DNA of 64,000 bases from Cylindrodendrum hubeiense (taxonomy: Eukaryota; Ascomycota; Sordariomycetes; Hypocreales; Nectriaceae). The notes under the pieces are model-generated. The model was not told where the DNA came from and did not search any database. It saw only the letters and a program-made list of their open reading frames with translations. The DNA is taken from contig JAANBB010000210.1 in assembly GCA_014621425.1 (NCBI GenBank), positions 1-64,000 of the forward strand, in the 5' to 3' direction. This document shows positions 1,810-31,709 of the stretch, one piece after another. The first letter of the stretch is position 1; each line of letters begins with the position of its first letter. Made by a program: the position numbers and the translations under genes.

Positions 1810-2970
1810 CTATGGACCTTGCCAGTTTGATCTTGCCAACCACTCCTCGAATGTGCTTACCCGCACACCAAGATCTTGCCAGGATGTGTCATCTGCAGGA
1901 TCCATAGTGCCATAGCAGATCTTGTCACTCGGAGCGACAGCGATCCATTGCATCATCTGCTTGATATCTTCCTCATACCCCTTTCCGACTGTTGCTGCTA
2001 CAGTAGCTCCCCATTGTTCGATTGTCGTTGACTCAAAACTAGAAGGTTGAGATGTTACCCTCGAAAAGATGTTTGAAAATTCGGAGAATCGAATTTTAGA
2101 GCTGACCACAGGATATGTCTTCGAGCCTGTTTTCTGGGGACCGACCTTGAAAACCTCTGTTACTTGTGTTTAGCTGTTTTTCATCTTCGCCTTTTTTGTC
2201 ATCGGTCATGCTCACCGCCTGCAAAGACACCGATGTCGTAACCTGGATCAACCCAATCGGCAAGTGTGTCACCAGAAACAGGTGCACAAAAGCGGACGGA
2301 TCCATCTTCTGTCGATTAAAAGTTAGCATGAGTATTTAAAGAAGGTAGAAAAAGCCAACCTTCACGCCGACAATACTGCGACCAAGTCATATTGGTGTAG
2401 AAAAGGCCTAGAATTTTCCAATTAGACCAAGAAATCGCAATGGGAGAGCGAAATTTAACCTGGGATCAAAGCTGTGACGGAAGGCAATCGCTTTCGGGCG
2501 AGCTGCTCAATTTCGTGTTTATAATCGAAATGGTACACCTTCGTGAAGGCTCCACCACTTGACAACGTCAGATTGGGGAGACTGCTCATAACAAAGTGTT
2601 GGACTTTGCAATATTCTGCGGCGCCTATAATGTTGTTACCGGCAACCAGTTCATGTCGCATCTGGTCTTCAGTGTCAATAGTTTGGCCTGGGAGTCGATT
2701 GTGGGTAACAGCAAAGACCCCATGAGCATTTTTGAATGCCAGCTGTAAACTCTGGGCATCATAGATGTTAGCGTTAGCGAGACTCAGCCTCTCATTTGAC
2801 TGGAAATCCTCCAGGAGACGTTTAGCTCCTGGACTCTCGACATCCCGCGTAATCGCCCGAACTTGAAAGGACGGGGATGTCTCTTGAAGGAGAGCGCGGA
2901 CAACGCCTCGTCCTTGATTTCCCGTCGCCCCAAGAACGACGATGGTCCGAGTCTGCTGAATGGAAGCCAT
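1810..2970 (-). CDS. NmrA-like NAD(P)-binding protein
   Basis: Four exons read 2970-2460, 2407-2360, 2308-2216 and 2156-1810, giving 332 residues; all introns are GT-AG and the phases match. The N-terminus has a Rossmann fold with the dinucleotide motif GATGNQGRG at about residues 14-22, typical of atypical short-chain dehydrogenases of the NmrA family. These act as redox sensors or reductases; family members regulate nitrogen metabolism or occur in pigment clusters. The join gives the family-like stretch PGLFYTNMTW after the first intron, which supports the model. There is no SDR Tyr-x3-Lys pair in the usual place, so a regulator or sensor role is as likely as an enzyme. It lies about 4.8 kb from the polyketide cluster with a membrane protein in between, so cluster membership is open. 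Confidence 0.85.
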
Positions 2971-7727: not shown

Positions 7728-9356
7728 TCAGTGCATAACCCCGTTAACATCGACACGCCTCCCATTCAGCTCGTAACCCTCTTCCATACCCGTCTCCCAC
7801 TGGTTCTTGACAAAGTCCAAGGCCTCGGGCCTGCGAGGCTCGAAGCGAACAGCAAAGGGCTTGGGGGCCTGAAACTCCGTTTCATCCCACGCGTCGGGGC
7901 CGGCATCAAGGGCCGCGACGCCCTTGGGCGGCTTGATGACAAGAGCCCATAGGATGTTTGCCAGCGCAAGGTCCAGGGTCATCTCGGCCAGCTTGGCGCC
8001 GGGGCAGACGCGGCGCCCGACGCCGAAGGAAAAGTGGTCGCGCTTGGTCTGGTCGCCGGCGGCGTATTCGAAGCTGGAGCGGGGGTAGCTCAGGTACCGC
8101 TCGGGTTTGAAAGCCTCCGGGTCCTCCCACTTCGCCGGGTCTGAACCGAGGAAGATGGTGTTGCCGAGCAGCACCGTGCCCTTGGGGATGATGAAGTCCT
8201 TGTACCGGACGTCGGCATCGGCAAAGCGCTTGATGCACCAGACGGGAACGGGCTTCAGGCGGATCGTCTCCTTGATACAGGCGTTGATGTAGGGCAGGTT
8301 GGGCAAGTCCTGGAGTGTGGGTGTACGGTTGGGTCCGATGACGCGCATGAGTTCCTCATAGGCCTTGTCCTGGACCTGGGGGTTCGCCGCCATGTACAGG
8401 ATAGCCGAGTTGAAGGTGACGGTCGATGTCCCGGAGCCGGCATCAGCGATGCCACCGACGATCCAGGCGAAGTCCTCGTCAGTAAGTCCCTGATCCCGCC
8501 ACGACTGGTTCTTCTCGAGCAACTTCCGTCCGAAACACATGGGGGCACGGCCTGCCTCCATCTGGCCCTCGAGCCGCCGCCACAGCCGTAATTTGGCACT
8601 GAGAATCGGCTCCCTCAACGACTCAGCCATGCGCCTGCCGGGCTGCAGCCAGGCCGGCAACTTGGCAAGGAGAGGAATCTCGTCGACAATAAAGGAACCC
8701 GGCTTGGATATCTTGCTGAGCAGTTGCGTGCTGTGAATGGCGCTGCGCACGTCTTCGTGCTCCCAGCTATCCACACGCGAGCCGTAGCAGCTCGTCATCA
8801 GAATGCTGAAGAAGTAGCGTCGCACGTGCATGTAGAACTGCTGCCCGTCCTCGTTCTTGAAGGCGAAGTCGTGGAGGAGCTGTTTGGTCTCGAACTCCTG
8901 CGACGGGTTGAACTGGTCGGTCAGGGTTGTGGACAGAAGCCCGTGGACAATAGACCGGTATGCCCGCCACTTCTTCCCGTATGGCAGGGTATTCATGCGC
9001 ATGCCGCCAACGGCGACATCATGAGCGAGGGGCATGGGAGACCGGGACGAGGTGCTGACCGACTGCTTGTCGAAGATGTCCCGCATCGCCTCCGGGCTGT
9101 TGATAACGACCCAGTTGTACCAGCCAACCCTGATCTTGTAGACTTCACCGTACTGGATAGCCCACTGACCAAGGACCTTGGCTGATCTGCGGGGCAGACC
9201 AATGCCGATGCCGATGAGTGGCCACCCCCCGGGACCTTGCATCTTGTCCAGTCGACGATCGCGTTTGATCCATGCGAAGATAATTGCGACAGCCGCGCCG
9301 ACTAATGTCAAGGCGGCTAGTTTGTAAACTTCGTAAAGAGAAAGAAAGATGGCCAT
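7728..9356 (-). CDS. Cytochrome P450 of the aromatic polyketide cluster
   Basis: A single exon of 542 residues. An N-terminal membrane anchor lies at about 10-30, followed by the Pro/Gly hinge GPGGWPLIG. The K-helix ExxR is E363-T-I-R366. The haem loop is F442-S-F-G-V-G-R-R-V-C451-P-G, with Cys451 as the iron ligand. It resembles microsomal fungal P450s of the O-methylsterigmatocystin oxidoreductase (OrdA-like) type. The I-helix reads A306-G-S-G-T-S311, where most P450s have Asp or Glu at the fourth position; Gly309 replaces the acid that helps protonate bound oxygen. This may mean an unusual oxidation such as phenol coupling (inference). It is divergent from the exporter at 9869, with a 512 bp shared promoter, so co-expression is likely. 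Confidence 0.92.
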   Translation of the reverse strand: MAIFLSLYEVYKLAALTLVGAAVAIIFAWIKRDRRLDKMQGPGGWPLIGIGIGLPRRSAKVLGQWAIQYGEVYKIRVGWYNWVVINSPEAMRDIFDKQSVSTSSRSPMPLAHDVAVGGMRMNTLPYGKKWRAYRSIVHGLLSTTLTDQFNPSQEFETKQLLHDFAFKNEDGQQFYMHVRRYFFSILMTSCYGSRVDSWEHEDVRSAIHSTQLLSKISKPGSFIVDEIPLLAKLPAWLQPGRRMAESLREPILSAKLRLWRRLEGQMEAGRAPMCFGRKLLEKNQSWRDQGLTDEDFAWIVGGIADAGSGTSTVTFNSAILYMAANPQVQDKAYEELMRVIGPNRTPTLQDLPNLPYINACIKETIRLKPVPVWCIKRFADADVRYKDFIIPKGTVLLGNTIFLGSDPAKWEDPEAFKPERYLSYPRSSFEYAAGDQTKRDHFSFGVGRRVCPGAKLAEMTLDLALANILWALVIKPPKGVAALDAGPDAWDETEFQAPKPFAVRFEPRRPEALDFVKNQWETGMEEGYELNGRRVDVNGVMH

Positions 9357-9868
9357 GATTCACGTGTCGAGAACACTCGTGTCTTGGTCTAGATGCTCGA
9401 TATTGATGGCAAACATGGCTCAAGCAGAACAAGGTCACCTATTATATCGATATCAATTTCTGGTGTCTCGTAGCTGTGAAGCTGCGCCTTCACCGGACAC
9501 CGTCAGCTTGCATGAGATAATTCCTCCCGTGAAGTCCGAATCGCGGGATGACCCGTCTGCCCTGAATTAGCTCGATCCGGGATCTGGCTGGCTCCCGGGT
9601 AGGCAGATCCAAGGTATGTTGGTCCGGGGCATTAGGTGGGTCCGGGGTGATATAAGCCAGCCAATGGGGGTGAATCTACGCTGCCCGAAGTCGTCTCCAC
9701 TCCCGGTGTTAGACAACCCTTGAGATGTTGATATGGGCCGGATTCGAGATGATATGGACTGTCCAGAAGCCACTTCAAACATGTAAAAACATCTTCTACC
9801 AATAACATTTTCTGACATCAAGCTGCTCTCAACGGAGACCCCAAACAGCCAATCTCTGAATCACAACC
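9357..9868. promoter_or_regulatory. Bidirectional promoter, P450 / MFS exporter
   Basis: A 512 bp gap between two divergent starts. It holds ATCCGGG at 9575-9581, GTCCGGGG at 9622-9629 and 9640-9647, and a TATA-like GATATAA near 9648. The same core recurs upstream of the methyltransferase and the synthase, which suggests a shared operator (inference). Confidence 0.5.
9575..9581 (+). promoter_or_regulatory. ATCCGGG element, P450/MFS promoter
   Basis: A seven-base element inside the longer partial palindrome GATCCGGGATC. It matches elements at 14565 and 17144. A candidate binding site for the cluster's Zn2Cys6 regulator because it contains a CGG triplet; this is inference only. Confidence 0.3.
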
Positions 9869-11792
9869 ATGTCGCAGACAAGCACCAAGGCAGGTGATGA
9901 GGCCAGCCGCGAAGGCTCAGCCGTCCTCAGAAGCGACGAGGTCGAATCTCAACCAGTCCCGCCACCAACCCCCACGTATCCGACTGGCTTCAGCTTCGGA
10001 ATTACTTTGTTCGCCCTTTTCATTTCTCTGTTCTGTGTTGCATTGGACAGCACCATTATTTCAACGGCTATCCCGCGAATCACCGACCACTTCCACGCCC
10101 TGCAGGATGTGGGCTGGTATGGGTCATCGTATCTGCTTACCAAATGCGGTATGTACCTGCAGCATCAGCACCTTAGCTGGTAGTACTTGATTTGTTGCTA
10201 ACACCCATCAAGCCTTTCAACTCCCTTTTGGGAAAATGTTTCGTTTCTTCAGTCTGAAATGGACTTTCCTTGCTGCCTTGTTCATTTTTGAGGTCGGATC
10301 AGTCCTCTGTGCCGCTGCTCAATCGTCAGCAATGCTCATCGTTGGTGTAAGTATTGCCTCACTGGATTTATTAAAAGATAATTACTGACGCTGTGGTAGC
10401 GCCTGATTGCCGGCATTGGGTGCGCTGGCATCTCCAGTGGCGGGCTCATCATCATTGCCAACATTACTCCCATGGAAAAGCGCGCCACATACCAAAGTCT
10501 GTACGGTGGCATATTCGGTATTGCCTCTGTCGTTGGACCATTGGTCGGCGGAGCCTTTACTGATAAGGTCTCGTGGCGCTGGTGCTTCTATATCAACCTT
10601 CCCCTCGGTGCAGTCTCTGCTGCTTTCATCATCTTTTCTCTCCGTTTGCCAGCGAAGCCCAACCCTCTCAAAGAAATGGGCATTGTGAGCCTACTGTGGA
10701 ACCTTGACCCGATCGGGTTTGTTTTGTTTGTGCCCAGCATCATCTGTCTCCTGTTCACCCTCCAGGTACGTACCATACATCATCTACACTTATCTAGCTT
10801 CGTTGCTAATATCCACTAGTGGGGAGGCACGACATATGCATGGAACAGCGGGCAAATAATTGCACTGTTCGTGGTATTTGGAGTAACACTCATTGCCTTC
10901 ATTGTCAGTCAGGCCCTGCTTGGAGAGGGAGGAACTGGTAAGCATTCTCGATATCAATATTCCAATCTAGATTAATACCTAACCCACAACAGTTCCACCT
11001 CGCATTGCAAAGCAACGAACAATTTTTGCTTCCAGTCTCTTCACCTTTTGTCTCGCGGGCACTTTCTTTCTCCTCAGCTACTTCATCCCTATCTACTTCC
11101 AAGCAGTCAAGGGCAAATCGGCCCTGAGGTCCGGCATCGACTGCATCCCCCTCATCCTGCCCAACGTCATCGGTATCCTCTTCGCCGGCTTCGGCACAAG
11201 CAAGATCGGCTACTATGTCCCATTTATCTACCTCGCCGTGGTTATTGCCCCTATCGGCGCCGGACTCCTGACAACCCTCGAGCCCGGTACCAGCAGTGCG
11301 AAGTGGATTGGCTACCAGATTCTCTTCGGGTTCGGTTCTGGTTGCGGCTTTCAGCTTCCCCAGGTTGCTGCACAGATCGTGCTCCCGCCTCGCGATATCC
11401 CAATGGGGATCTCAGTGTCCATGCTCTTCCAGGGCCTGGGAGGCGCTGTTCTTATCAGCGCCGCCAATAACGTGCTCAACGACAAGCTGCTCCACTACAT
11501 CAACGCTCTCAACATCCCCGGCGTAGATGGCATGGATGTGATCAATGCTGGTGCTACGGGGTTCCGCGACATCATTCCCGCCGAGAATATCGTTGAGGTT
11601 GTTGCAGTTTATAACAAAGCTCTCCGTAAGGCCTTCCAGATTGCCCTAATCATGGCGTGCCTGAGTGCTCTTCCCGCCGCCTTGCTGGAGTGGAAGAGTG
11701 TTAAGAAAGGCAGTCCTGGTTCGGCGCAACCCAAACCGGAGGACAAGTCTGCGTCGCCCACCGGGAGTGATGTGGAGAAAACATCGTCTTAG
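9869..11792 (+). CDS. MFS exporter (DHA2-like, about 14 helices) of the polyketide cluster
   Basis: Five exons read 9869-10148, 10213-10346, 10400-10765, 10820-10937 and 10993-11792, giving 565 residues with consistent phases. The polar N-terminal 45 residues are followed by helix 1 with [13 protein letters not shown], the hallmark of fungal drug and toxin exporters of the DHA2/TRI12-like group. Then come [11 protein letters not shown], the antiporter-type segment [20 protein letters not shown], and a charged Ser/Pro-rich tail. Such proteins in the plasma membrane export polyketides by proton antiport and can give self-protection. It shares its promoter with the P450. A general multidrug pump is the alternative, but the position argues for a cluster role. 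Confidence 0.92.
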
Positions 11793-12310
11793 ATCACATC
11801 TTGACGATGAAGCGACCGATCATTTTAACAACAGTTGTTGCAGGGCTTGGGCCATTACGGCCCAAGGCTCTTTGTACGATAGAAGGTTACATATTTCATA
11901 TAGACATGGGCCAGAGCTTCCCACTCGATAGACTCTCATCAATAGATTATTATAATCGGCCACTTCATCTTGCTCAGCCACCACTGTGATAGAAGTACCT
12001 ACTGGCAGCTATATTACTTGCAAGGATATAGTCATACAATCAATACGTTAAGCTTAACATGCGTTGGCCTCAGTTTAAATACGTGAGTTATTCCTCTAAA
12101 CTGATCATTACCTCTATCTACCCCTCCCTTAATGATCATTCTGGAGTCTCTTCTCTTGTAATTCTGCTCTTTCCATTAGATGCATTGCAACTGCTCGCCA
12201 TTGATCTGGTGTAATAGTTGCTAGGATCTTTTGATGTTGGCTTTTGCTGCTTTGCTGCTCTCGGACTTGATCTAAAATATATTAACCTTGAACTCCTTCT
12301 GTATTTCTCT

Positions 12311-12778
12311 TCATCTTGGAAGTGTGCAAGTAACACTCCTTGATGAATATGTGCAATTTGCACATGCACCACCTGCAATATTCCTTTTGGCAATACAGCC
12401 TTGAAAAACACCAGTCCCCTTTGCACAATGCTCACAGGGAGGATCTTGTTGACTTCCATATATAAATATGAGAACAGCGTCAATATTTTGGGCACGTGTT
12501 ACATTCAACGCGCTTGATCCAGATCGCCCTTGTCTTGGTCGTTGATTCAATTCTAATAATCGTGTTCCATCTGAGACATGCTGGAATCTTGCAACCTTAG
12601 CTGGTCGCATCAATCGGGCTTTTCTTAATGCCCATGCGGTAAGCTCAGCTTGGGTCCGATGGCTGTTCCGTCTCTTCAGATGGGATTGTAAGGGAAAGAC
12701 CTGGTATCTGAAATGACATGATGTATGTGTAAGGAGGAAAGAAAAATTGAGGAGAATAACTAGAACCTTCAGACGCAT
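12311..12778 (-). CDS. Small Cys-rich protein (DUF3716-like), inside the cluster
   Basis: A 155-residue frame. Its C-terminal third has C-E-H-C, then F-x2-C, then GGACANC and a last Cys, spaced as in the fungal Cys-rich domain I know as DUF3716 (PF12511, from memory). The preceding segment (NIDAVLIFIYG) aligns by eye with YVNALLIQSRG in the gene at 62944-63694. The hydrophobic N-terminus may be a mis-chosen start, so the true start could lie further in. A second open frame of 119 codons overlaps the 3' end in another phase, so the end may be altered by an intron or frameshift. It is AT-rich compared with its cluster neighbours, suggesting a later arrival. Function unknown; possibly zinc binding. 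Confidence 0.5.
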   Translation of the reverse strand: MRLKVLVILLNFSFLLTHTSCHFRYQVFPLQSHLKRRNSHRTQAELTAWALRKARLMRPAKVARFQHVSDGTRLLELNQRPRQGRSGSSALNVTRAQNIDAVLIFIYGSQQDPPCEHCAKGTGVFQGCIAKRNIAGGACANCTYSSRSVTCTLPR

Positions 12779-12897
12779 ATTAGAAGTAAGATTAAAGCAT
12801 ATGAGAAATACACCCTTTTATTTCGAATGAATAGTAACCAAGCTCCACCCGCACTACAACCGAACAATGCCGGCTGAACAATCTTCAGTGTGTTCGG

Positions 12898-14337
12898 TTA
12901 TCCACTAATGTCCCAGTTCTCCTCCTTCTCCTCGTCCTGCTGGACATCCCTATCCAGCTCTACCTCCAACAGCGACATAGCACTTCCAAAAGGCTTCGTG
13001 ACCTGTCGCAGCCGCAAACCCTCATCCGCAGCCGCCAGCAGCGCTCTCCACTGCTCAAGGTCCCTCTCATGGCTGTTGAAGACCTGCATCATGGTCAGGT
13101 CGCGCACGCGCACGATGCGCTCCACCGAGTTGGGGACCTGCCCCGGCGCGGGCAGAACAGTGTCCATGATGAGGAGTTTAGCCGTCCCTTTCTCTAAGAC
13201 GGGCACCAAGTTCTTGAGGATGGTGATGGCTACATGATCGGGCCAGTCGTGCAGGATCATGCGCAGGAGATAGACGTCGGCACCGGCGACGGGCTGCGGC
13301 TGGGTAAAGTCGTGGCCCTGGAATGTGATGCGGGAGAGAATGTTATTCGGGAGGGTTGTCTCAGCGGCCTGGCGTCCGGCGTTGGCATTATCGGGGAGGT
13401 CTTGGACGATGAAATTGAGGTCCGGGAAGGACCGGGCGAGGGCGATGGCTGCGTTGCCAGTCGAGCCGCCGACATCAACTACCAGCCCGGATCTGAGCTC
13501 TGCCCAGGGATACCCGTTTACCAGATGCTTCAAGTCGACACCTACGCTCGTCGTCACATTGCGCATGTAGCCCGCGAACTCAGCCGTATTGGCGGGGTCC
13601 AACGAGAGATGGTCGAAGAAGGGCAACTCCGTGCTGAAGGCGACGTTGTAGGCAGTCTCGTTCTTGGCGACGCTGGCTGGTGTGAATTGGTCGTGGGCTG
13701 CCGTCATGGAGAGAGCCGTGGGCGCCGAGCGGGTGGAAAGATAGGACGCCCATGAGTGCACATCTGCGTCGCGTGCCACCAGCGCTGAGGTGGCTGAGTG
13801 GCCGACGCGGTTTGGTTCCGGTTCACGGAACAACGCCGAGGTCATGGCCATGCGGACGATGCTCTTGAGACGTGTCTCAGGAATGTCAACGGCCCCGTTG
13901 GCCCGCTTGGAAGCCGCCATGGCGAGGTCCTTGTATGAAATAGTACCCGATGCAGGGACGAGATGGAAGATATCAAAGCGGAGGAGCCAGGCGAGGCAGG
14001 CTACGTATTGGAAGCCGGGAGCGAGGTTTGTGATGAACTCGCTGGGGCCCGCGGCGAGCTGGAAGAGCTGCAACGCAGAGTCCATGAGACTCTGCCGTGC
14101 CCGCTGGACATTTGGCGGAGCGTCCTTGGGAAGAGTGCTGCTGGGTCCGTCGGGCTCGTGCGACGGCTGGGGTAACTCGTGAGCAGAGAGATACTGGCTC
14201 ACGGCGATGGCATTCTTGGTGCATTTCCAGGCGAGCTCCTCTAGGAGGAAAGAAGATGCGGCAGCTGACCGATGTGTTGCCACATTCTCTGTGTCATTGC
14301 TGTTGTTAAGCTTTCCGGGCATTGTGAATATGAGCAC
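12898..14337 (-). CDS. SAM-dependent O-methyltransferase of the polyketide cluster
   Basis: A single exon of 479 residues; a start at Met6 is equally possible. It is a plant-type class II O-methyltransferase like the sterigmatocystin methyltransferases (AflP/OmtA type): an N-terminal helical dimerisation and winged-helix region, then a Rossmann SAM domain. The SAM loop is D288-V-G-G-S-T-G-N295. The catalytic base is His363 in ILHDWPD, and the HERDLEQW segment near 423 supplies the usual acidic partner. It would methylate a phenolic hydroxyl of the polyketide in the cytosol. It lies between the small Cys-rich gene and the regulator, with a GC-rich coding sequence like the P450 and synthase. 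Which hydroxyl it modifies cannot be read from the sequence. Confidence 0.92.
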   Translation of the reverse strand: MLIFTMPGKLNNSNDTENVATHRSAAASSFLLEELAWKCTKNAIAVSQYLSAHELPQPSHEPDGPSSTLPKDAPPNVQRARQSLMDSALQLFQLAAGPSEFITNLAPGFQYVACLAWLLRFDIFHLVPASGTISYKDLAMAASKRANGAVDIPETRLKSIVRMAMTSALFREPEPNRVGHSATSALVARDADVHSWASYLSTRSAPTALSMTAAHDQFTPASVAKNETAYNVAFSTELPFFDHLSLDPANTAEFAGYMRNVTTSVGVDLKHLVNGYPWAELRSGLVVDVGGSTGNAAIALARSFPDLNFIVQDLPDNANAGRQAAETTLPNNILSRITFQGHDFTQPQPVAGADVYLLRMILHDWPDHVAITILKNLVPVLEKGTAKLLIMDTVLPAPGQVPNSVERIVRVRDLTMMQVFNSHERDLEQWRALLAAADEGLRLRQVTKPFGSAMSLLEVELDRDVQQDEEKEENWDISG

Positions 14338-15033
14338 TTGATAGGTTCGGTAAGGTAAGAGCCGAAAGAATGAGTACTGGGATTGATCGGTAAGATATTT
14401 GGCATGTATGTAAATAGCTTTTTGTTACACAGCCATTCTTAAGCAAAGTTGTGAGCTGTTATCCACGGCCGGAGTATGCACCGGGCCTGCGGTCGATGGG
14501 GCCTAAGTTAGCCCGCCCGTGTTGGGTTAGTTGTTAATGGGCCGTCCCGGTCGGTACCCGAACCATCCGGGCCAAATACAATAGCCCGAGTGCGGGAATG
14601 CGGCTGAGCACTACGTTGCATCTTTCTAACATGCTTTAGACTCGTGCGGCTGGAAGTCGACTTGGTCGCAAAAGGACCCTAATTAGGATTGTGTCGATCT
14701 TGTCACAATGAGACATCGGGTAACTCATCTGCCAATTGTAAAGCACACACATCACCGGGAGGCTTTGATATGGCGTGGATAGAAATGTCTAAATGTGACA
14801 CATCTAGGACTAATTGCTAATAATAGCCACGATGGCTGTTGGGAATCTCGAGATTCTGCAGACGTCTTGACTCACTTCACGTAACGAGCGCCATTTCACA
14901 GGGCAGCATGGCGGAGATAATTCCGTCTTAGGGGTGAAGAGAATTCAAGCAGGGATTCTTTTGGCATTTCAAGCATCTGAAATAGAAATACATATGAGTG
15001 TGTATCATTGTTAGTCACTCGCCGATACCCTCG
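14338..15033. promoter_or_regulatory. Methyltransferase promoter and regulator 3' region
   Basis: A 696 bp gap holding the upstream region of the methyltransferase and the downstream end of the regulator. ATCCGGG lies at 14565-14571. No other gene was seen. Confidence 0.4.
14565..14571 (+). promoter_or_regulatory. ATCCGGG element, methyltransferase promoter
   Basis: About 230 bp upstream of the methyltransferase start. Same core as at 9575 and 17144; candidate cluster operator (inference). Confidence 0.3.
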
Positions 15034-16412
15034 TCAAAAGTTAAGGTTCTCATCAAGCACGGATAAGCCTGACCTTGCCTTCCTCACAATGCGCCTATGC
15101 TCGGTCTGAAGCCAGGTACCAAGACTCGCAAACAAGCTTGCATCCGCTATGATAGTACTGAATTCTGCAGCTGCGGGGCAAGAATCACCCGGTGTGTGTA
15201 AATCTGACGTGCCGGTGCCGAGCGAGACGAACGAATCAATCAAGCCACCCACCGTCCTCAGTTCGCTAAGAAGAAGGCAGTTTGTCAGGGCGGTTTGCAC
15301 GTTGCGGTCATCGCTTTGGAAGGTCCCGACCGTAATGGGTGTCGGGAGCACCGAAACACTGCCCTTGTCATCAGCAGCTCCCGCATCTGACGTCTTGAGT
15401 GGGGTGCTGCCTGACATTGATGGCGTTGCCTGCTGCGGTGCCAACGTGGGCGGGAACGGCGACGACGACAGCCCTGCGGGACTCGTATTCCAGGCGGCCT
15501 GCTGGTACCACAAAAGAACGCGAGATACGATGGAAGCGTACAGCATAGCCGTGTGGGGGGAGCGCGCGCACGGGCATCTGAGGAGTAGCTGCAGGCGGCT
15601 GACAACATCACGGTTCCGTGTCAGGACGGAGCCCAGGTCCAGTATGCGGGCTGGCACGCCATCAGAGACGGGATTGGCGGGGTTGGCGCAGTACAGCCGG
15701 CGCATAATGTCCTTGGCTTCCCGGGTGCAGTAGGGCCTTGCCGTTGCTGCCGCGGCCGACGTTATCGATGTTGCGGTTGTTGCGGTTGTTGAGCTGTCGA
15801 CCGAGCCGCTCTGCCCGCTCATGCACGTGTCCTGGTCCGACGAGAAGGCCGTAAGCGCCCCCGGGCTGCCGAAGCCGTCGAACGGGAACCAGCTTTGGTC
15901 GGAGGCAGAGAAGGGGAAATCCATCGCCATTGCCTCGTCTGCCAAGCTGAGCATCATGTCGGCGCTGTCGGTGCTGGTGCTGTTGTGGCCGCCGCCGGGC
16001 AGGTCGATGGCCGTCGTCCCGGGCTCACCGGGGCGCGAAGGGGGCGACAAGGAAGCGGCGGGCCTCTTGCGCGGAGGCTTCCCGGCTTTCCTCGACACCC
16101 CATACACGCAGCTCAAACGGCCTTGGACGCAGCGCGTGCAGGCAGGCCGGCCACGATCACATTTGATCTTGAAGTTGCCAGGTTAGCCAAGCGCTCCCTT
16201 CAATCGCAGCATCAAGGGCGCACCTTTGCCAGTCCACAGGCGTCGCAGCTGGAGCGCAGTTTGGAGGGCATCAGGGGGGTTTGTGATTGGGCCGTGGGTG
16301 GCTCGAGCTGGGATGAAGACATATCTGGCGAGAACGACATGTTTCCCTGCTTGGGAGTGCGGTCGGGGGCCGAAATAAACAGGGTTGGCTGCTCCATGGC
16401 AAACGATGGCAT
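15034..16412 (-). CDS. AflR-like Zn2Cys6 cluster regulator
   Basis: Two exons read 16412-16224 and 16167-15034, about 440 residues; starts at 16397 or 16340 are also possible. The intron splits the zinc cluster, and joining gives six cysteines at 56, 59, 66, 73, 76 and 83 (C-x2-C-x6-C-x6-C-x2-C-x6-C) with DRGRPACTRC. A basic linker follows (RKAGKPPRKRP), then a low-complexity Ser/Thr/Ala part. The C-terminal part has LLRCPCARSPHTAMLYASIVSR spread over about 22 residues near 270, matching the aflatoxin regulatory protein (AFLR) domain. It is a nuclear activator that would bind the promoters of the cluster. It is divergent from the synthase with about 1.05 kb between. Known AflR sites are TCG-N5-CGA; I found none in the two shared promoters. 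Confidence 0.9.
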
Positions 16413-17464
16413 GGCGTGTAGTCGTGACTTTCGGAGCGGCCGACCGAGAGCACGGCGTGCCAAGGCGGCGATTTTGGAGAACTTTGTTGCTTTGGGGGCA
16501 CGGGTCGGAATTTTTGCTTACCCGCCCGGCCGCCCTCATTATCATGCAGGGGAACGCGGAGACGCAGGCTTCCGTAACAGAGACACAGATGGATGCACTC
16601 AGCCTTTCCGCCACTATCACAGCCCGTGCTGCATGTCCCCGCTGATGTACCCGCTGATGCACGGAACTGACGTCAGCTCCAGAAAGCTTCATTTCACTTC
16701 GCCTTCAATCACCGCTTCAGTCACCGCGTCAATCACCACGCGTAGCCAACACACACACAACACAGCCAACATGACAACGTACACCACACAGCCAACCAAC
16801 GCAACAGCGCACCCAGACGCCTTGGGGCCTCAACCGCACCCTGGTCGACGTTGCGGGCCCGGATAGCCCGGCAGTGGCTGCGCCTTGACGACCTACAGTC
16901 ATGAACAAAGGTATTGAGTCAAAGCGCTCTGGCACGCTTGCACCCGTCTAGCCGCGCAGCCTGAGGATTCCCGGAGGATCGATCAGGCTACATGCTAGGC
17001 TGTTCTCGATGCGCAATCGATACGCCGCCGCCGCGCGCGTGCCATGTCAGCCGCACCAACCAACCCCCCGAGGGCCAAGGTTAAGCCGAACTATGACAGT
17101 TATGGTGGGCCGTTGGAAGAGTTGAGCTGGCTACCCGGGGCAAATCCGGGAGGATGGCCTTCTCGCGTTGTAGCAAGTGTGGTGTTCAACCCCGGGATAC
17201 CTGAGAAGATAGGCTGCGGTTCGGGACATGAGAGATCGGGGTCAAACCGGGCATGACAACTACGTGATAGCAGGCTCCATTACAGTCCCGGAGCATCTCC
17301 CCAACGGGATTGCTGTAGATTTACTGTCGATATTCCTCGGAATCTAGTTATAAGACTCCCAATGTAACCCTATCTCCCGTTGGAACAACTAACAGCGACT
17401 CAACATCGGAAAAGATTCAAACCCTCAACTCAAACTCTCAGCAACTGTCTAAATTTCGTTCAAC
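16413..17464. promoter_or_regulatory. Bidirectional promoter, regulator / polyketide synthase
   Basis: About 1.05 kb between divergent starts. It contains CGG-N5-CCG at 16432-16442 (just upstream of or within the regulator's 5' end), a CA-rich tract around 16745-16810, CCCGGGG near 17134, ATCCGGG at 17144-17150, CCCGGGAT at 17191-17198, and a TATA-like TTATAA near 17349 on the synthase side. Confidence 0.5.
17144..17150 (+). promoter_or_regulatory. ATCCGGG element, synthase promoter
   Basis: About 315 bp upstream of the synthase start, close to two further CCCGGG words. Same core as at 9575 and 14565. Confidence 0.3.
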
Positions 17465-20400
17465 ATGGAGCACCAGGAGACCTTGTACCTGTTTGGAGAC
17501 CAGACGTTCGACGTGGAGCCGCATTTACCTAAGCTGCTCGATGCCAAGAACAGCAATGTGATACTCAGAGACTTTCTCGACAGGGTTTATGATGCTCTAC
17601 GCGTGCAGATATTCCAACTGCCGAAAAACGTGCGCGAAGAGCTGCCTAGATTCACAAACATCGAGGATGTGCTGCTTTGGAAGCGGACCGAGGGGAGTAT
17701 CCGTTGCGTGCCGTTGGACATGGCCATGACCTGCATGTATCAACTGGCATCTTTCATCATTAGGTAAATTTAACCATAAAAAACACTAGGTTCTGGTAGG
17801 CTAACTTAATCGATCAAGCCAAACGGGCAACGAGTACCCCAAACCCGACGATGCCTGCATTCTCGGTTTATGCACTGGAGCTCTGGCCGCCGTGACCGTC
17901 AGTTGCAGTCGAAGCCTCTCTGAACTGGTTCCCCGGGCTGTGAAGGCTGTGATTGTTGCTTTTGGCGTCGGTGTGTGCGCCTCCAACATGAAGATGCGCC
18001 TTGTGTCTCCGATTGAGATGTCTCGGATGTGGTTCATAATGGTGGCTGGACCGTCTGCTCCCCAAGCGGTGCAAAGGTTCTGTGAAGAAAGTGCACTTCC
18101 CTTGACGGCTAAGCCGTTCATTAGTGCTTACACACCTAGTGGCCTGGCTGTGAGCGGTCCGCCAAGCTCGCTCGATGAACTGGTGTCATCGGTGCACTTT
18201 CAGGGGTTGAAGCACAAGGCCAAAGCTGTGTATGCTCCCTATCATGCACCCCATCTTTATTCGGCAGCAGACATCGAAGATATTTTGACGCCGATCGAGC
18301 TGAACAGCGGGTCTCAGCCACTCGCCAAAATCCCCGTCATGTCAAGCACCGGTGACTGGATCGAAGGGGCGGACTTTAAGGATCTCCTCAGGGTGGCGCT
18401 GGAACACATCCTCCTCCATCCTATTCGCTGGAACGGCATTCTTGACGGGGTTCGGGATCGCCTCGGGCGCTCGTGGGAAACCAAGAAGTGCAAGGTCGAG
18501 TTGTTTGGATCTCGAGCCGACCAGCTCATCTACACGGCACTGAAGCAGCCGAGTGGACTGGGACGGACATTGACATCTCGACCGTCGATTGAGAGACTGT
18601 CATCGGATTACGGAAGCGGGACCGCGCCTGAATGCACAACACAGGCCAGGCCCAAAATTGCCATTATTGGCATGTCTGGACGATTCCCAGGCGGGGCCAA
18701 CAGCAACGAAGCGTTCTGGGACCTCCTCAGAGAGGGACTCGACGTTCACGAGGAGGTCCCGCCCATGCATTGGTCCAAGGCACACGTAGATCCGACGGGA
18801 AGTCGCAAGAACACCGGTGCAACGCCGTATGGCTGTTGGCTGAGCGATCCGGCCTCGTTTGACGCCCGCTTCTTCAACATCTCTCCGCGAGAGGCGCCGC
18901 AGATTGACCCTGCACAGAGAATTGCCCTCATGACGGCGTACGAGGCGCTGGAACAAGCAGGTGTCGTGCCAGATGCCACGCCTTCGACGAGGAGGGACCG
19001 CGTGGGCGTCTTTTACGGCGTGACGAGCAACGACTGGATGGAGACTAACAGTGCGCAAAACATTGACACATATTTCATCCCTGGCGGCAACCGAGCCTTT
19101 ATCCCGGGCCGAATTAACTATTTCTTCAAGTTCAGCGGCCCTAGCTATGCTACCGACACGGCCTGTTCTTCCAGTCTTGCTGCTATTCATACGGCGGTTA
19201 ACTCTCTCTGGCATCGTGACATCGACATGGCTATCGCAGGCGGCACCAACGTACTGACCAACCCGGATTTCACCTCCGGGCTGGACCGCGGCCACTTTCT
19301 ATCCCGCACTGGCAACTGTAAGACATTTGACGACTCGGCTGACGGCTACTGCCGCGGCGAAGGTGTCAGCACTGTGATCCTCAAGCGGCTCGAGGATGCC
19401 GTCGCCGAGAAGGACCCCATCTTGGGTGTGATTCTCGGCGCTTATACGAATCACTCGGCCGAGGCAGAGAGCATTACACGGCCCCATACCGGCGCCCAGC
19501 GAGCCATCTTTTCCAAGATTCTCAACTCGAGTGCCGTTGACGCTAGTAGCGTGGGGTACGTCGAAATGCACGGCACAGGGACGCAGGCCGGCGACGCGAC
19601 CGAGATGTCCAGCGTGCTCGAGGTGTTCGCACCGCCGGGACAAGCAGCTCGCCAGGACCCCGTCTTCCTCGGCTCAGCAAAATCAAATATTGGCCACGGT
19701 GAAGCCGCTTCGGGCGTGTCGAGCTTGATCAAGGTGTTGTTGATGATGAAGAACAGCCTGATTCCGCCGCATATCGGCATCAAGACCAAGATCAACCACA
19801 AGTTTCCGACCGACCTGGCAGAGAGGAACGTCTACATTGCCAAAGAGGCTGTTCCGTGGAATCGTTCTGGTTTGAAACCTAGGCGCGCATTTGTGAACAA
19901 TTTCTCGGCGGCGGGCGGCAACTCGGCCCTCCTGCTGGAAGATGCCCCGACGCCAATGCCTGATGACGATAGCTGCAACACCGCGGGCGCGAACCTCGTC
20001 GCCGTTTCTGCGAAAACGGGCGTCTCGCTCCAGGGCAGCCTCTCTTTGTTTAAAGGATTCCTACAGAACAATAAAGAGAGAATCTCGGTAGGCCAGCTCT
20101 CGTATACGACAACCGCCCGGCGCATCCACCACCCACACCGTGTCATGCTTGTCGGGTCCTCGGTCAACGAACTCGTTGCTCAGATCGACACCGCCCTTCG
20201 CGATCAGACGGGCATGACACGACCCAAGAGCAAGACGCCCAAGATCGTCTTTGCCTTCACCGGGCAGGGCGCACAGTTCCCCGGCATGGGCCGTCAAATG
20301 ATGGAGACATTTGCCTTGTTCCGCACTGAGCTCCGCCAGCTGGACCACGTTGCCCATACTCTCGGGTTCCCATCCATCATGCCCGTGTACATGGCTAAAG

Positions 20401-23400
20401 AAAATGAGTCCCTTGACGACTTTCCTCCTTTACAAGTCCAACTTGCTAGTGTCTGCATGCAGATTGCGCTGGCACGTCTCTGGGCATCATGGGGGATTGT
20501 GCCCGATGCCGTCGTCGGCCACAGCTTAGGCGAATACGCGGCGCTGAATGTCGCAGGAGTATTGTCTGACTCGGACGCCGTCTACCTCGTGGGCACACGG
20601 GCCCGGCTTCTTCAAGACCTCTGCACCCGTGGAACACACTCCATGCTGGTTGTTCGCGCTTCGGCTGACACAATCACGACCACGCTGAAAGGTACACCCC
20701 ACCAGATTGCGTGTATAAACTCGCCCATCGAAACGGTACTGGCCGGTCCCGGTCACGAGATATTCGTGGCAAGTCAGATGCTGGAGGGCGTTGGCATCAA
20801 GACAACCAGGCTCAAGATTCCTTATGCATTCCACTCATCTCAAGTCGATCCTATCTTGGCACCCTTCAAAAAGTCTGCCGCTTCTGTCCGATATCTTACT
20901 CCAAAGTGTCCGGTTCTGTGCCCGCTGAACGGAACCATCGTTACTACGGACGGAACGTTTGGACCAGCCTACCTTGGCCGCCACTGCCGCGAGCCCGTCA
21001 ATCTGCTCCAGGCTCTCCAATCTGCCCGCCGTGATGGCATCATGACAGATCAATCCATCTTGCTCGAAGTCGGCCCGCACCCTGCAGTCTCAGGCATGGT
21101 CAAGGCGACTTTGGGTCCGAAAATGACAGTCATCTCGGCGCTGAACCGCAAGTCGGCTCGGGACGTGCTCGCTGACGCTTTGAAGGTGGTCTACCAGGCC
21201 GGTGCCGATGTTTCATGGCCGACATATCATGATGACTTCAAGGCTTCCCAGAAGGTCATCACAGGGCTGCCGGCTTACAGTTGGGACTTGAAGCCGTACT
21301 GGATCCAGTATGTGAATGACTGGTCGCTCCGCAAGGGGGATCCGCCTCTCGTAGTCGATAAAGCCGAGGAGGAGAAGATGAAGCTTGAGAGCACCACAAT
21401 CCATCGCATTGTTGAAGAGTCATCATCCGAGAGCGGTGCAAAGGAGCACATCATAGTTGAGGCAGATATAACTCGGCCGGACCTGAATCCGCTTGTGCAG
21501 GGGCACATGGTCGACGACATCCCGCTGTGCACGCCGTCCGTGTATGCTGACATGGCGCTCACGCTGGGCCGGTATCTCGTCCAGCGCCGGCAAAACCTTG
21601 CATTGGAGACCGACAACCAGCAGGTTGATGTGTCAGACATGAGCATTTTCAAGGCCCTGATTGTGAAGCAACAAGGCCCACAACCGCTTCAGGGGCATGC
21701 CGCGGTGGATTGGACCAAGAATGAGGCCGCCATGAAGTTTGTCAGTTTCGATGGCAAGGGCAAACCGCAAGAACGCGCGAAATGCACTCTACGCTTCACA
21801 GATCGTTCTATTCTCCTAACTAAACTCCAAAACGAAGCCGCGTCGATCAAGACGCGCATGCAGGACCTCCGCCAGGGCATTGCCAAAGAAACAGCAGCCC
21901 GTTTCAACCGGCCCATGGTCTACCGCATGATCCGCCCACTCGCCCAGTTCCATGATGATTACCGAGCCATCGACGAAGTGGTTCTCGATAGCACCACCCT
22001 CGAGGCCTCGGCATCCGTTAGCTTTGGAGGAATCAAGAAGGGCGGCCACTTTGCCCTCCACCCCGCCATCATCGATGCGTTTACGCAATCCTGTGGGTTT
22101 ACTATGAACTGCAACGATCATACCGATCTCGACAAAGAGGTCTTCATGAACCATGGCTGGGGACGCTTCCAGGTGTTCGAGGATGTGCATTTCGATCGGC
22201 CATATACCTCGTATACGCGCATGTTTGAGGGCAAGGATAAGCTCTGGCATGGCGATGTGGTGATTTTTGATGGCGAGACCGTCGTGGCTGCCTTTGAGAA
22301 GATTGCCATACAATGCGTTCCGCGACGAGTGCTCCGAGTTATTCTCTCTCTGGAGAGCGGTCTCAAGTCCAAGAAGCCTGCTCCTGCTCCCCCTCAGACA
22401 CCGTCGACTCAAATCAAGACAGTGAAATTTGCCGAAACCCACGTCGAGACTCGAGTTATTCCTCCAGCAACCCAACAATTACCTGTGCCTGGCACTTCCA
22501 AGGTCTCTTCTGCCTTGCAGATTATCGCTGAGGAGAGCGGAGTTGCCTTGGATGAGCTCACCGACAACAGTGCCTTTGCTGACCTCGGCGTCGACTCATT
22601 GCTTGGTTTGACAATCTCGGCGCGATTCAGGGAGGAACTCGACCTGGAGATTGACTTTGACGCCATCTTTATTACTTATCCAACAATTGGTGACCTGAAA
22701 AGCTTCATTGAGCCTGCCGGAGTGCCCGCTATCAAAGTCGAAGAGCATCGCCCTTCACCCTTCATAGACACACATTCCACAGCACCCGAAGCTGAGGCAG
22801 AGGGAGATGCAGTAGTCAATTCGGACTTGGGTGGAGAGCCCGTCTTGGTCTTGACAAGCAACAACGAAAGCAGCAGGGTTGACTTCATCCGCGTGCTTGA
22901 CATTGTCTCGGAGGAGAGCGGCATCGCGGTGGAGGAGTTGACCGACGACACACACTTTGCCGACACAGGCGTGGACTCACTCCTGTCGCTCATAATTGTT
23001 AGCCGGTTCCGTGAAGAGCTGGAAATGGACATCCCTATGGATTCTCTCTTTGTCGACTGCCCGACTGTCGCCGACCTGAGATCCTCCTTGCTCGGCATGT
23101 CATCATCCGCATCATCTGCTTCGGAGGACTTCACAGAAATTCAAAGCATCTCGAAGAAATCCGTGGTGTTGGGTGGAAAGTCCTTTGGCACAACTATTCA
23201 AATGAAACCCATTGATATCACCCCTTCATCTTCTGGAGCCTCCTCAGACACCGACGAGTTCGAACCCGAGCGACAGCCCGTCGTCGTGCCTCGAGCCACC
23301 TCGCTCATTCTACAGGGAAACCCAAAAACAGCCTCTAAAACTCTCTTCCTATTCCCCGACGGAGCCGGCGCCGCCTTTTCGTACGCGGCAATCCCCAGCC

Positions 23401-24262
23401 TAGGCTCCGACACGTGCGTCGTGGCTCTCAACTCGCCCTTTCTCAAGGAAGCCGACAAACTGCGCGCGGCTCGCCTCGACGATGTCATCATCAACGGTTA
23501 TCTCGCTGAGATCCGGAGCCGCCAACGCCTCGGACCCTACCACCTCGGCGGATGGTCGGCCGGTGGGATCCTCGCCTACCGCGCTGCGCAGATCCTAACC
23601 AGTAGTCAAGAACAGGTCCTCAGCCTGAGCCTGATCGACTCACCAGCCCCGCTCAACGGACTCGACCGCCTCCCGCCGCACTTCTACGAATACTGCGAGA
23701 GCCTGCACCTGTTCGGGCATAAGTCGTCGTCCGGAGCGGGCGGTGGCAAGCCACCCGCCTGGCTCATCCCACACTTCAACGCCACCATCGACCTGCTTCA
23801 CGAGTACCGGGCGGCACCCATGCGGCCAGGGCGGTTCTTCGATGTCCCCAAGGTGAGCATCATTTGGGCGGCCGCTTGCATTGCCGATAACCCGCTCCTG
23901 CCGAAGTTGGCGCCGCACCCGGATGACACTGAAGGGATGAAGTTCCTTCTGGAGCGGCGGACGGATTTCAGGGGCAATGGGTGGGAGGCCTTGTTTCCAG
24001 GCCGGGAACGTGGTATTGTTGTTGACAGGGTTGAAGGAGCCCATCACTTCTCCATGATGGTGAGTTTTTCCTTCCGGCTTTGCTTGGTGTTCGGACTTGT
24101 GCTGTTTTACATCTACTTCCCCTTGATGGCTGCCTATATTGGTCTGGATTCTGTGTTGGTGGACCGTGTAACATCTCTTGCTAACCAGGGCATCTTTATT
24201 CTACACAGCGCAAACCTCACTCCCAGAAGCTCGCAGAGTTTCTTCGCAAGGCGATGGAGTAG
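17465..24262 (+). CDS. Non-reducing polyketide synthase, SAT-KS-AT-PT-ACP-ACP-TE
   Basis: Three exons read 17465-17763, 17819-24059 and 24209-24262, giving 2197 residues. Domains in order: SAT with nucleophile Cys118 (GLCTG); KS with Cys549 (DTACSSS) and the two His of HGTGT and SNIGH; AT with Ser1002 (GHSLGE); product template with His1329 (QGHMVDD) and Asp1519; two carrier domains with phosphopantetheine Ser1693 and Ser1820, both in GVDSLL; thioesterase/Claisen cyclase with Ser2013 (GWSAGG) and His2175/2176. All active sites are intact and no reducing domain is present. It would condense acetyl/malonyl units into an aromatic core released by the last domain. The last 17 residues come from a 54 nt exon; reading through the intron would replace the expected C-terminus. 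Chain length and ring pattern cannot be read by eye. Double carrier plus TE matches naphthopyrone- and tetrahydroxynaphthalene-type synthases. Confidence 0.96.
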
Positions 24263-29644: not shown

Positions 29645-31709
29645 ATTTCTTCATTACAAACCGAGTCTGATCAGCCGAGAGATAGAAATCCGCCCACAAC
29701 TAATACTGAAATGGGCTAGACCTTCAGCCACAGGGCCCCAAACCGTCGGCGAAAATACTGACACGGGTTTTGTCCCTAACCGAGAGCCCGAAGCTGTGAC
29801 GGATACGTGTACATATCCTGTCACGACTCAGTCAACAAACAGGGTGAGCCCTGAACAGATAGCGGTCCAAGGGACACGGAGGTCTACTGGTTTGCAGTCT
29901 ACGAAGGTGCACATTGAATAGATCAGTGCTCTGTGGTTATCGGCACATTGGACTCTTACCATCATCAGACGCCATCTATATTGCTCAAACCTACTTGCCT
30001 TTCGCCCCTACAAGCTAGCGTTGCATATCACTGTGTATATCTTGTGAACTGAGCTGACACGGGTCGTGAATAAAACGTCGAGGCCGGCTTTAATGGCCAT
30101 GTACTCGGCCCCACAGAGTGTTAGAAAGTAATCTGCTAACAGAGATAAAAGAAGACATACGCGACCGATATATGACTGTTAAAGTATCCCCAAGAATCAT
30201 TTGGTGAGTGACAAATTTCTCGGAGAGCCCACATTGGAGCTACACGTGGTGTAAGTTTGTCCCCGCAGATTGTGGGTTGGCCGTTTCCTGCGAGCCCGCT
30301 TCAATTGCGTACCCTCATGGCAGTCCGCACCTCGATTGTGGCTCGAACTCCGCAGTTTCATGCACTAATTCTACACGAACTGAATATCAGCGTTATCATT
30401 TTCATGCCATTGTCATCCATTTCCATCCATTACCATCCAAATGAGAGCTGCGCGGGTCGATACGCCCCGATTCGGCATGATTTTGGCCGACCCGCGCGGC
30501 TCGGTGCGGTGCGATAGCCCGTAGCCCCACGCTGGAGAGGACGCTTCCTTCTCCCCGGTGTTACAGGGAACTCCTTCCGTTACTAAAGCTGGTACGTTGT
30601 GGATCTTTTCCTGCCGGTCGGTGCTTCCTAAAGCCGATCGCTGCGCTGGGAGCGGAGTATCAACTAGCTATGCTTGGCTCGGTGCTGGTCCAATCCAGGC
30701 CTCAATTCAGCATACTTTATCTCGGCTCATTATGCCGCTGTACTACCAAGTCCCTATAATGGATTGTGTCGAGCTATCTGAAACAGGTTGGTTCGTAAGT
30801 AAAAACCTTGCTGTAACTAACACTTGCTCGAAGATTATTGAGAAGCTACAATTGAATATGATGTGGAATTGGCGAATAAAGATGCCTGTCCCTTCATACT
30901 TCTTAGTTAGAACATGACATAGCGTGGAGGGGGCCGCTCTAACACGAATTTCTTTACATGCTGGGCAACTGTACTTCATAAGCAACCTATCTATGCATTG
31001 AATGTGCCCTAAATCGAGCATAACATAGTTGACTAAAGATATTCAATATTGATCAGCGACAATATGTTTACTATCGGCTGGTCCAACTTTAACTGTATTC
31101 ATGATTGTGGCGGAATTTTGCCCTGTTTTTATTACTTCTCAGGGCTGCATCCTGAATACCACCAAGACTCGACACGACACCGCTCTACTTCAAATCTGAC
31201 CCTACTCCCAATACCAATTTTGCCGGCTAGATGGTTGATGATATGCTAACTGGAATCATATATTAGCTTTAGTATAACTGTCAGGCCCACCCTTTACAGT
31301 TGCAAAGCTCCTGGCTCACAGTATGTACAAATTCCGCAAAAGTCCGCAGAGCGCCACCATAGTATGCGAAACGGCCGGTGATACTTCTTTAACCCTGAGG
31401 AAGTGCATTAATGGTGTAGGTGGTCCATGCATTTGTCACGACTGCCGGAATTAGGTCAATTAGCGCCCGAGCAAAACAACGGTTGCATTCGGATTTCTTC
31501 TAGCTCACACTGGCATTGGGAGAGGAACTTAAAGAATAGCCACATAGCAATCATTTGAGTAATTGTGGAGACGAGCTGGAGTTTTTATTTATATGCCATC
31601 CATTCCCATCCAACCTCCAACACATCCATTCTACACATCCATTCCAATCACCCTTTTATTCATCCATCTACAACTTAATTACACAAACTCAATTCACCTC
31701 TACTTCACA
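29645..31709. other. Intergenic, 2.1 kb, with transposon-like GC island
   Basis: No gene is supported. The stretch 30445-30720 is GC-rich against an AT-rich background and begins with an inverted repeat (30450-30497). The last 150 bp before the SDR gene hold a TATA-like TTTATTTATATG near 31578 and a CATCC-rich pyrimidine tract, as in fungal promoters. Confidence 0.4.
30450..30497. repeat. 10 bp GC-rich inverted repeat, possible transposon relic
   Basis: Arms GCGCGGGTCG (30450-30459) and CGACCCGCGC (30488-30497). The GGGTCG/CGACCC style recalls subterminal repeats of hAT-type elements, but no transposase frame is present. Origin is inference. Confidence 0.35.

What the first reader, a model, noticed from the sequence alone, without database searches (positions are those of the whole stretch)
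7728..24262. Compact, apparently intact aromatic polyketide cluster
The synthase has all active-site residues, and P450, methyltransferase, exporter and AflR-like regulator lie within 16.5 kb with two shared promoters. The tailoring set is minimal: one methylation and one oxidation. No FAD monooxygenase or laccase is present, unlike the bikaverin or cercosporin clusters as I know them. The set is reminiscent of clusters for coupled naphthopyrones or coumarins (PKS, methyltransferase, coupling P450), but the product is inference.
Basis: partly seen in the sequence, partly recalled or inferred. Interest (0 to 1): 0.75.

Follow-up and report, generated by a model that had tools for sequence, protein, structure and literature searches.

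The report
Fungal toralactone-type pigment gene cluster
Five neighbouring genes in a mould of the family Nectriaceae look like a complete small assembly line for an aromatic pigment; its core genes recur in moulds of several orders, are sisters of the fusarubin pigment genes, and no product for them turned up in the searches made.

Summary
The window is contig C125 (67,061 bp) of Cylindrodendrum hubeiense (Nectriaceae). Five intact genes lie at 7,728-24,262: P450, MFS exporter, O-methyltransferase (OMT), AflR-type regulator, and a SAT-KS-AT-PT-ACP-ACP-TE synthase with all ten catalytic positions checked filled. The product guess needs changing. In a KS-AT-PT tree the synthase falls in a clade of thioesterase-ended enzymes that is sister to the reductase-ended fusarubin-type synthases; next out are VioA-type synthases (putative nor-toralactone on heterologous expression) and a viriditoxin-like group. 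The P450 and OMT trees broadly mirror this split. The published Aspergillus terreus pgm cluster holds the same five gene types. PKS and OMT rows share a contig length in 13 of 18 window-clade rows (the window included), over Xylariales, Diaporthales, Sordariales and Hypocreales. Best reading: heptaketide, nor-toralactone, toralactone by O-methylation, then P450 oxidation of the naphthalene ring, export, AflR-like control. Chain length, methylation site, P450 reaction (hydroxylation or coupling) and co-regulation are inferred. My paper searches, limited to open-licence papers, showed no characterised member of this clade. Verdict: real, functional-looking, new variant of a known kind; moderate interest.

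The parts
7728..9356 (-). Cytochrome P450 (542 aa, intron-less); relatives are named O-methylsterigmatocystin oxidoreductase; nearest outside relatives (51-61%) include P450s on the same contigs as R-ended fusarubin-type PKS
   Evidence: Pfam PF00067 223 bits; nine rows at 82-90%; P450 tree
9357..9868 (.). divergent promoter stretch shared by P450 and MFS; 6 CCCGG-core sites (overlapping sites on the two strands counted apart)
9869..11792 (+). MFS exporter; exons 9869-10148, 10213-10346, 10400-10765, 10820-10937, 10993-11792
   Evidence: splice model; PF07690 on the last exon, 37.9 bits
12311..12778 (-). DUF3716 ORF (155 aa) between MFS and OMT; role unknown, probably not part of the pathway
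   Evidence: PF12511 49.5 bits
12898..14322 (-). O-methyltransferase (474 aa) with VDVGGSTG and HDW motifs
   Evidence: PF00891 81.5 bits; relatives up to 88%, PgmB-named row 58%; OMT tree
14323..15033 (.). stretch upstream of the OMT and downstream of the regulator; 4 CCCGG-core sites and the only TCGN5CGA site of the five stretches scanned (14551)
15034..16412 (-). AflR-type Zn2Cys6 regulator (440 aa); exons 16412-16224 and 16167-15034
   Evidence: PF08493 68.1 bits, PF00172 28.4 bits; splice model
16413..17464 (.). divergent promoter stretch shared by regulator and PKS; 11 CCCGG-core sites
17465..24262 (+). non-reducing PKS, SAT-KS-AT-PT-ACP-ACP-TE, 2,197 aa; exons 17465-17763, 17819-24059, 24209-24262

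Best explanation
It is a functional-looking naphthalene-polyketide cluster, the thioesterase-ended sister lineage of the fusarubin-type pigment synthases. The synthase most likely builds a heptaketide, folds it with its PT domain into a bicyclic naphthalene, and the TE releases it as the naphtho-alpha-pyrone nor-toralactone, where the fusarubin synthases release an aldehyde with a reductase domain. The OMT then most likely methylates the hydroxyl equivalent to 6-OH (giving toralactone), the P450 oxidises the naphthalene ring (hydroxylation towards a quinol or quinone, the step given to the flavin enzyme Fsr3 in the fusarubin pathway), the MFS protein exports the product, and the AflR-type protein switches the genes on. 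Shown by computation: gene content, catalytic residues, clade, conserved PKS-OMT linkage. Inferred: chain length, pyrone release, methylation site, P450 reaction, export, co-regulation.
For: KS-AT-PT tree of 63 of 120 listed homologues (all 37 TE-ended, 26 of 83 R-ended) plus one outgroup fragment: window clade of 25 TE-ended rows (SH-aLRT 98) sister to 26 R-ended rows (100), joined at 100; VioA-type and viriditoxin-like TE rows outside. The TE-only tree (36 of 37 rows) keeps the window set (17 rows, 99) apart from the Vio and Vdt-like rows. VioA alone gives a compound the authors call putative nor-toralactone (HRMS), and with VioC and VioM semivioxanthin; VioA orthologues are reported in P. 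freii, A. steynii and A. melleus, and the vio cluster in T. tonsurans, all species with rows in this tree (PMC12093964, passages). In PMC13207265 (passages) PigA2 leads to spectroscopically identified nor-toralactone and PigN2 methylates its 6-OH to toralactone in vitro. A. terreus pgm: PgmA PKS-R, PgmB OMT, PgmC P450, PgmR AflR-like, PgmG MFS, reported as co-expressed; the authors suggest PgmC may do the job of Fsr3 (PMC5488093, section 4.1 and passages). P450 tree (38 rows) and OMT tree (40 rows) separate the window clade from rows linked to R-ended PKS, with one P450 exception told below; OMT rows linked to Vio-type PKS lie outside both. CCCGG cores in three cluster promoter stretches: 21 against a mean of 5.3 in 300 dinucleotide shuffles, 0 of 300 reaching it.
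Against: No member of the window clade has a known product in anything I found, so the product rests on bracketing. PT identity to the Trichophyton row is only 45.6% and to the A. viridinutans row 43.2%, against 61.0% to the Fusarium falciforme R-type row. TE-ended members of the wider pigment group can make other things: PMC5488093 places the A. flavus asparasone (anthraquinone) synthase, TE/CLC-ended, in the same group as the fusarubin synthases. The root depends on one long outgroup row (warning), and the deep split of the TE tree is weak (74). PgmC itself was not among the listed P450s by name, so its kinship to the window P450 was not tested. One P450 row (P0158, on a 3.8-Mb contig length shared with TE-type PKS P0021) nests among R-associated P450s. 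After correction over all 6-mers the promoter motif is at the edge: best 6-mer 18 (double-counted) against shuffle mean 12.4 and maximum 18 in 200. No expression data. Odds lowered from 0.60 to 0.55 on checking, because the VioA product is called putative in its paper and PgmC was not compared.
Confidence: 0.55

Rival explanations
1. Same PKS and OMT chemistry, but the P450 is a phenol-coupling enzyme and the product is a bis-naphthopyrone (the reader's favoured analogy, with a P450 in place of the laccase/fasciclin pair of the vio and pig pathways). It shares its first steps with the best explanation, so the odds overlap.
For: No laccase found on C125 and no fasciclin domain in the 28 ORFs scanned; a fungal P450 that dimerises anthraquinones is known (ClaM, as cited in PMC8998751, passages read; KtnC is recalled and was seen only as a term count in the listing).
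Against: P450s linked to R-ended fusarubin-type PKS are among its nearest outside relatives, and for the pgm cluster the published suggestion is a monooxygenase in place of Fsr3. No coupling P450 sequence was available here to test kinship.
Confidence: 0.25
2. The TE acts as a Claisen cyclase and the product is a naphtho-gamma-pyrone (YWA1/nor-rubrofusarin type).
For: Alb1/WA synthases share the SAT-KS-AT-PT-ACP-ACP-TE layout (PMC5488093, section 4.1), and several relatives carry the name conidial yellow pigment synthase.
Against: The nearest TE-ended synthases with a reported product in the tree are VioA-type, naphtho-alpha-pyrone; names such as conidial yellow pigment are source labels and were not tested.
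Confidence: 0.12
3. A longer (octa- to nonaketide) tricyclic product, as in asparasone or bikaverin (chain lengths recalled).
For: Asparasone synthase, TE/CLC-ended, is placed in the fusarubin group by PMC5488093.
Against: Both bracketing groups in my tree are reported to make heptaketides; no synthase named for bikaverin or asparasone was among the 120 listed homologues, though most rows carry no product name.
Confidence: 0.1
4. Kotanin-like bicoumarin cluster.
For: Only the gene-type resemblance (PKS, OMT, P450, recalled).
Against: Tree placement among naphthalene synthases; no KtnS sequence was available to compare.
Confidence: 0.02

Closest known systems
Aspergillus terreus pgm cluster (PgmA/B/C/R/G), PMC5488093
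   Same: Reductase-ended PKS that its authors group with Fsr1, OMT (PgmB-named row 58% identical), P450, AflR-like regulator, MFS permease
   Different: PgmA ends in a reductase domain, not TE; pgm also has PgmD SDR, PgmE methyltransferase, PgmF quinone reductase, PgmH FAD protein; its product is only hypothesised; PgmA and PgmC sequences were not compared here
Fusarium fusarubin cluster (fsr1-6)
   Same: Sister synthase lineage (66.6% identity in KS-AT-PT to the fsr1-named Cladobotryum row), OMT, regulator
   Different: Reductive release to an aldehyde; flavin monooxygenase Fsr3 and no P450 named in the comparison of PMC5488093; extra dehydrogenases
Trichophyton vio cluster (viomellein, PMC12093964) and Penicillium pig2 (PMC13207265)
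   Same: Synthase giving nor-toralactone (called putative for VioA); OMT; vio also has regulator and transporter
   Different: 57.0% KS-AT-PT identity to the T. tonsurans row; vio has reductase VioC, oxidases VioO1/O2, laccase VioL, fasciclin VioF, and the paper text has no occurrence of P450
Viriditoxin-type synthases (VdtA)
   Same: Naphtho-alpha-pyrone synthase; the viriditoxin-like rows in the tree (my label, from A. viridinutans and A. felis) are TE-ended
   Different: Those rows lie outside the window/fusarubin clade; the cluster uses laccase VdtB, hydrolase-like VdtD and dehydrogenase VdtF (PMC11877519, passages)

Membership tests
Non-reducing fungal PKS, SAT-KS-AT-PT-ACP2-TE | ordered domains with catalytic residues | tested here: met
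Fusarubin/pgm-type clusters | synthase in the fusarubin clade ending in a thioester reductase | tested here: not met
   ends in TE; sister to, not inside, the R-ended clade
Fusarubin/pgm-type clusters | linked OMT of the PgmB kin group | tested here: inconclusive
   OMT clade beside the R-linked OMTs that include the PgmB-named row; the joining forks have support 80-83
Fusarubin/pgm-type clusters | linked P450 and AflR-like regulator of the PgmC and PgmR kin groups | tested here: inconclusive
   P450s on contigs of R-ended PKS are near outside relatives, PgmC itself not compared; regulator by Pfam AflR only, no tree
vio/viriditoxin-type naphtho-alpha-pyranone clusters | TE-ended synthase that releases nor-toralactone or its analogue | not testable with these tools
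   kinship supports it; product needs expression
vio/viriditoxin-type naphtho-alpha-pyranone clusters | laccase with fasciclin or hydrolase-like partner for coupling | tested here: not met
   no laccase hit on C125, 19 of 19 candidates scored; no fasciclin match in the 28 ORFs scanned, no separate search
Cercosporin-type clusters | flavin monooxygenase in cluster (recalled) | tested here: not met
   none among the 28 ORFs scanned; genome search incomplete, 19 of 158 candidates scored
Kotanin-type bicoumarin clusters | synthase kin to KtnS | not tested
   no KtnS sequence available; placement among naphthalene synthases speaks against it

The most novel reading that the evidence does not exclude
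An unrecognised, anciently conserved pathway, present in four orders of Sordariomycetes and perhaps passed to Talaromyces, in which a P450 rather than a laccase or flavin enzyme finishes a toralactone-type pyrone, giving a new class of oxidised or P450-coupled naphtho-alpha-pyrone pigment; and the fusarubin family arose from such a TE-ended ancestor by a single TE-to-reductase exchange within an otherwise kept cluster.
Probability: 0.3. Interest if true: 0.6.

Novelty: new variant of a known kind. Interest (0 to 1): 0.42.

Why it matters
It links two pigment families, the reductase-released fusarubins and the thioesterase-released toralactone pyrones, through related tailoring genes. That makes a clean test possible: whether exchanging the release domain during evolution changed the product from aldehyde to lactone while the same kinds of OMT and P450 kept working. 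Viomellein and nor-toralactone are reported as antibacterial (PMC12093964, PMC13207265, passages), so an orphan clade found in moulds of four orders is a reasonable target for compound discovery.

Tried and rejected
Kotanin/coumarin reading: set aside on tree placement, without a KtnS sequence to compare. AflJ-like (non-catalytic) reading of the OMT beside an AflR-type gene: set aside, the SAM-binding and HDW motifs are present and the protein groups with OMT rows linked to PKS genes, among them the PgmB-named row; AflJ itself was not compared. AflR binding site TCGN5CGA as a shared promoter element: only one site, upstream of the OMT. Horizontal transfer as the explanation for high identity: not settled. 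In KS-AT-PT the window PKS is 79.6-88.9% identical to the ten window-clade rows compared, all from other orders, against 72.2-78.7% for this fungus's R-type PKS versus seven rows from Xylariales, Diaporthales and Sordariales (orders of these rows in part recalled), 72.6-76.6% versus three Fusarium rows and 87.3-89.2% versus Ilyonectria and Dactylonectria; the same Cytospora-Annulohypoxylon pair gives 85.3% (TE) and 75.3% (R). Where resolved, though, the TE-clade tree follows fungal orders, so strong conservation plus loss is equally possible. The Talaromyces proteolyticus OMT (85%; Eurotiales) is the best single hint of transfer. Contig-length matching uses the longest contig printed for each cluster of proteins and proves little on megabase contigs; 16 of the 53 matches are under 150 kb, the window's own included. 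In that table 38 of 120 OMT rows were not entered, and 2 of 120 PKS rows had no contig length. The P450 list hides near-identical members (the window's own P450 was not listed), so 3 of 18 is a lower bound. Structure prediction and fold searches were not used. The 2016 ClaM paper was not held.
Full report
What the window is. The best homologue of the PKS is 100% identical over the query and is G7Z17_g8371 of Cylindrodendrum hubeiense, on a 67,061-bp contig; the window is C125:1-64000 of a 47.5-Mb, 798-contig genome and C125 is 67,061 bp. The genus is in Nectriaceae, Hypocreales. PMC11433043 lists this species with a 48.81-Mb assembly, GCA_014621425.1 (passage read).

The observation. Five genes are intact within 7,728-24,262. 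Splice models, set by eye, remove four introns from the MFS gene, one from the regulator and two from the PKS; the PKS model gives 2,197 aa, the length of the database protein. The PKS has SAT, KS, AT, PT, two ACPs and TE, with the ten catalytic positions checked filled as expected; KS and AT histidines were not checked. The OMT has its SAM and HDW motifs; the P450 matches PF00067 over residues 40-479 of 542. The P450/MFS pair and the regulator/PKS pair are divergent over 512 and 1,052 bp. A DUF3716 ORF lies between MFS and OMT. Elsewhere in the window ORFs match an NmrA-like protein, an SDR, a fungal transcription-factor domain (22.2 bits, just under its cut-off of 23), an alpha-L-rhamnosidase, a sugar transporter and a Mug190-like C2 protein. 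The SDR (31563-32711) and the NmrA-like ORF (2455-2970) cannot be excluded as cluster members without expression data.

Where the synthase belongs. 5,714 proteins passed the cut-off among 7,990 scored and 120 were listed; by their Pfam column 37 of 120 end in a thioesterase and I took the other 83 as reductase-ended. A KS-AT-PT tree with all 37 and 26 of the 83, plus one outgroup fragment, puts the window in a 17-row set (98), inside an 18-row clade (100), inside a 25-row TE-ended clade (98) that is sister to the 26 R-ended rows (100); the two together are at 100. Outside lie Bisporella/Clarireedia, five VioA-type rows, Xylona and four viriditoxin-like rows. The vio label rests for four of the five rows on species named in PMC12093964 and for Malbranchea on the tree alone; the viriditoxin-like label is mine, from A. 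viridinutans and A. felis. The R-ended rows form one clade, so one change of release domain suffices; that TE is the older state is inferred from the outer rows, and the program warned that the long outgroup branch makes the root unsure. In the TE-only tree (36 of 37 rows) the window set is 17 rows at 99, apart from Vio and Vdt-like rows, with a weak deep split.

What it most likely makes. VioA alone gives a compound called putative nor-toralactone, and VioA with VioC and VioM gives semivioxanthin (PMC12093964, passages read); PigA2 leads to identified nor-toralactone and PigN2 methylates its 6-OH to toralactone (PMC13207265, passages read). Fusarubin synthases are reported to give a heptaketide naphthaldehyde (PMC5488093, section 4.1 read). 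The window synthase lies between these two heptaketide groups and has the TE. Nor-toralactone is therefore the best prediction for the PKS and toralactone for PKS plus OMT. The nearest P450s outside the window clade are at 51-61% identity and a number of them sit on contigs with an R-ended PKS; the A. terreus pgm cluster shows the same five gene types, and its authors suggest that PgmC stands in for the flavin enzyme Fsr3, but PgmC itself was not compared. I therefore prefer ring oxidation over coupling, at modest odds.

Conservation of the unit. Across the wider family 53 contig lengths are shared by two or three of the lists, 16 of them under 150 kb. Locus tags agree in cases such as FH972_026699 (PKS), _026701 (P450) and _026702 (OMT). 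Large contigs prove little, and one case conflicts: P0158 on a 3.8-Mb Cytospora contig with a TE-type PKS nests among R-associated P450s. Regulator and MFS genes were not searched for in relatives. Window-clade PKS rows come from Hypocreales, Xylariales, Diaporthales and Sordariales (orders), and the OMT also occurs in Thelonectria olida (87%, Nectriaceae) and Talaromyces proteolyticus (85%, Eurotiales).

Regulation. The AflR consensus TCGN5CGA occurs once in the five stretches scanned, upstream of the OMT. A CCCGG core is dense in the three cluster promoter stretches: 9.2 per kb against 1.7 for the window and 0-0.75 in four other stretches taken as gene-poor; 21 sites against 5.3 in shuffles, 0 of 300 reaching it. 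Overlapping sites on the two strands count twice. It was picked after looking, and the correction over all 6-mers leaves it suggestive only.

Novelty. Ten searches of open-licence papers, for the species, pgm genes, naphthopyrone plus Xylariales, nor-toralactone, semivioxanthin, coupling P450s, fusarubin plus thioesterase, toralactone plus P450, toralactone plus genera, and cladofulvin, showed me no described cluster of this clade in the listings and passages seen. One search listed only 5 of 1,349 papers and says little; the Hypoxylaceae survey PMC8403587 was seen as 12 of 37 term passages, none of which described it. Most subscription papers are not held, so a published case may exist. I rate it a new variant of a known kind: known parts and family, a different release domain and an orphan product.

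Noticed in passing
12311-12778 (-) and 62944-63468 (-): Two DUF3716 (PF12511) ORFs in one window, one of them inside the cluster.
   Followed up: no
G000 C756:53998-54741 (L002): The same genome carries an R-ended fusarubin-type PKS (G7Z17_g5015, P0048); no match to the window's OMT (18 of 18 candidates scored) or P450 (80 of 136 scored) lies on that contig.
   Followed up: partly
36641-39717 (-): Alpha-L-rhamnosidase domains spread over three adjacent ORFs, perhaps split by introns.
   Followed up: no
31563-32711 (+) and 2455-2970 (-): An SDR and an NmrA-like ORF lie 7.3 and 4.8 kb from the cluster ends; possible but unproven extra members.
   Followed up: no
P0247, Talaromyces proteolyticus: OMT 85% identical to the window's in a different fungal class, a candidate for horizontal transfer.
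   Followed up: partly
   Followed up: no
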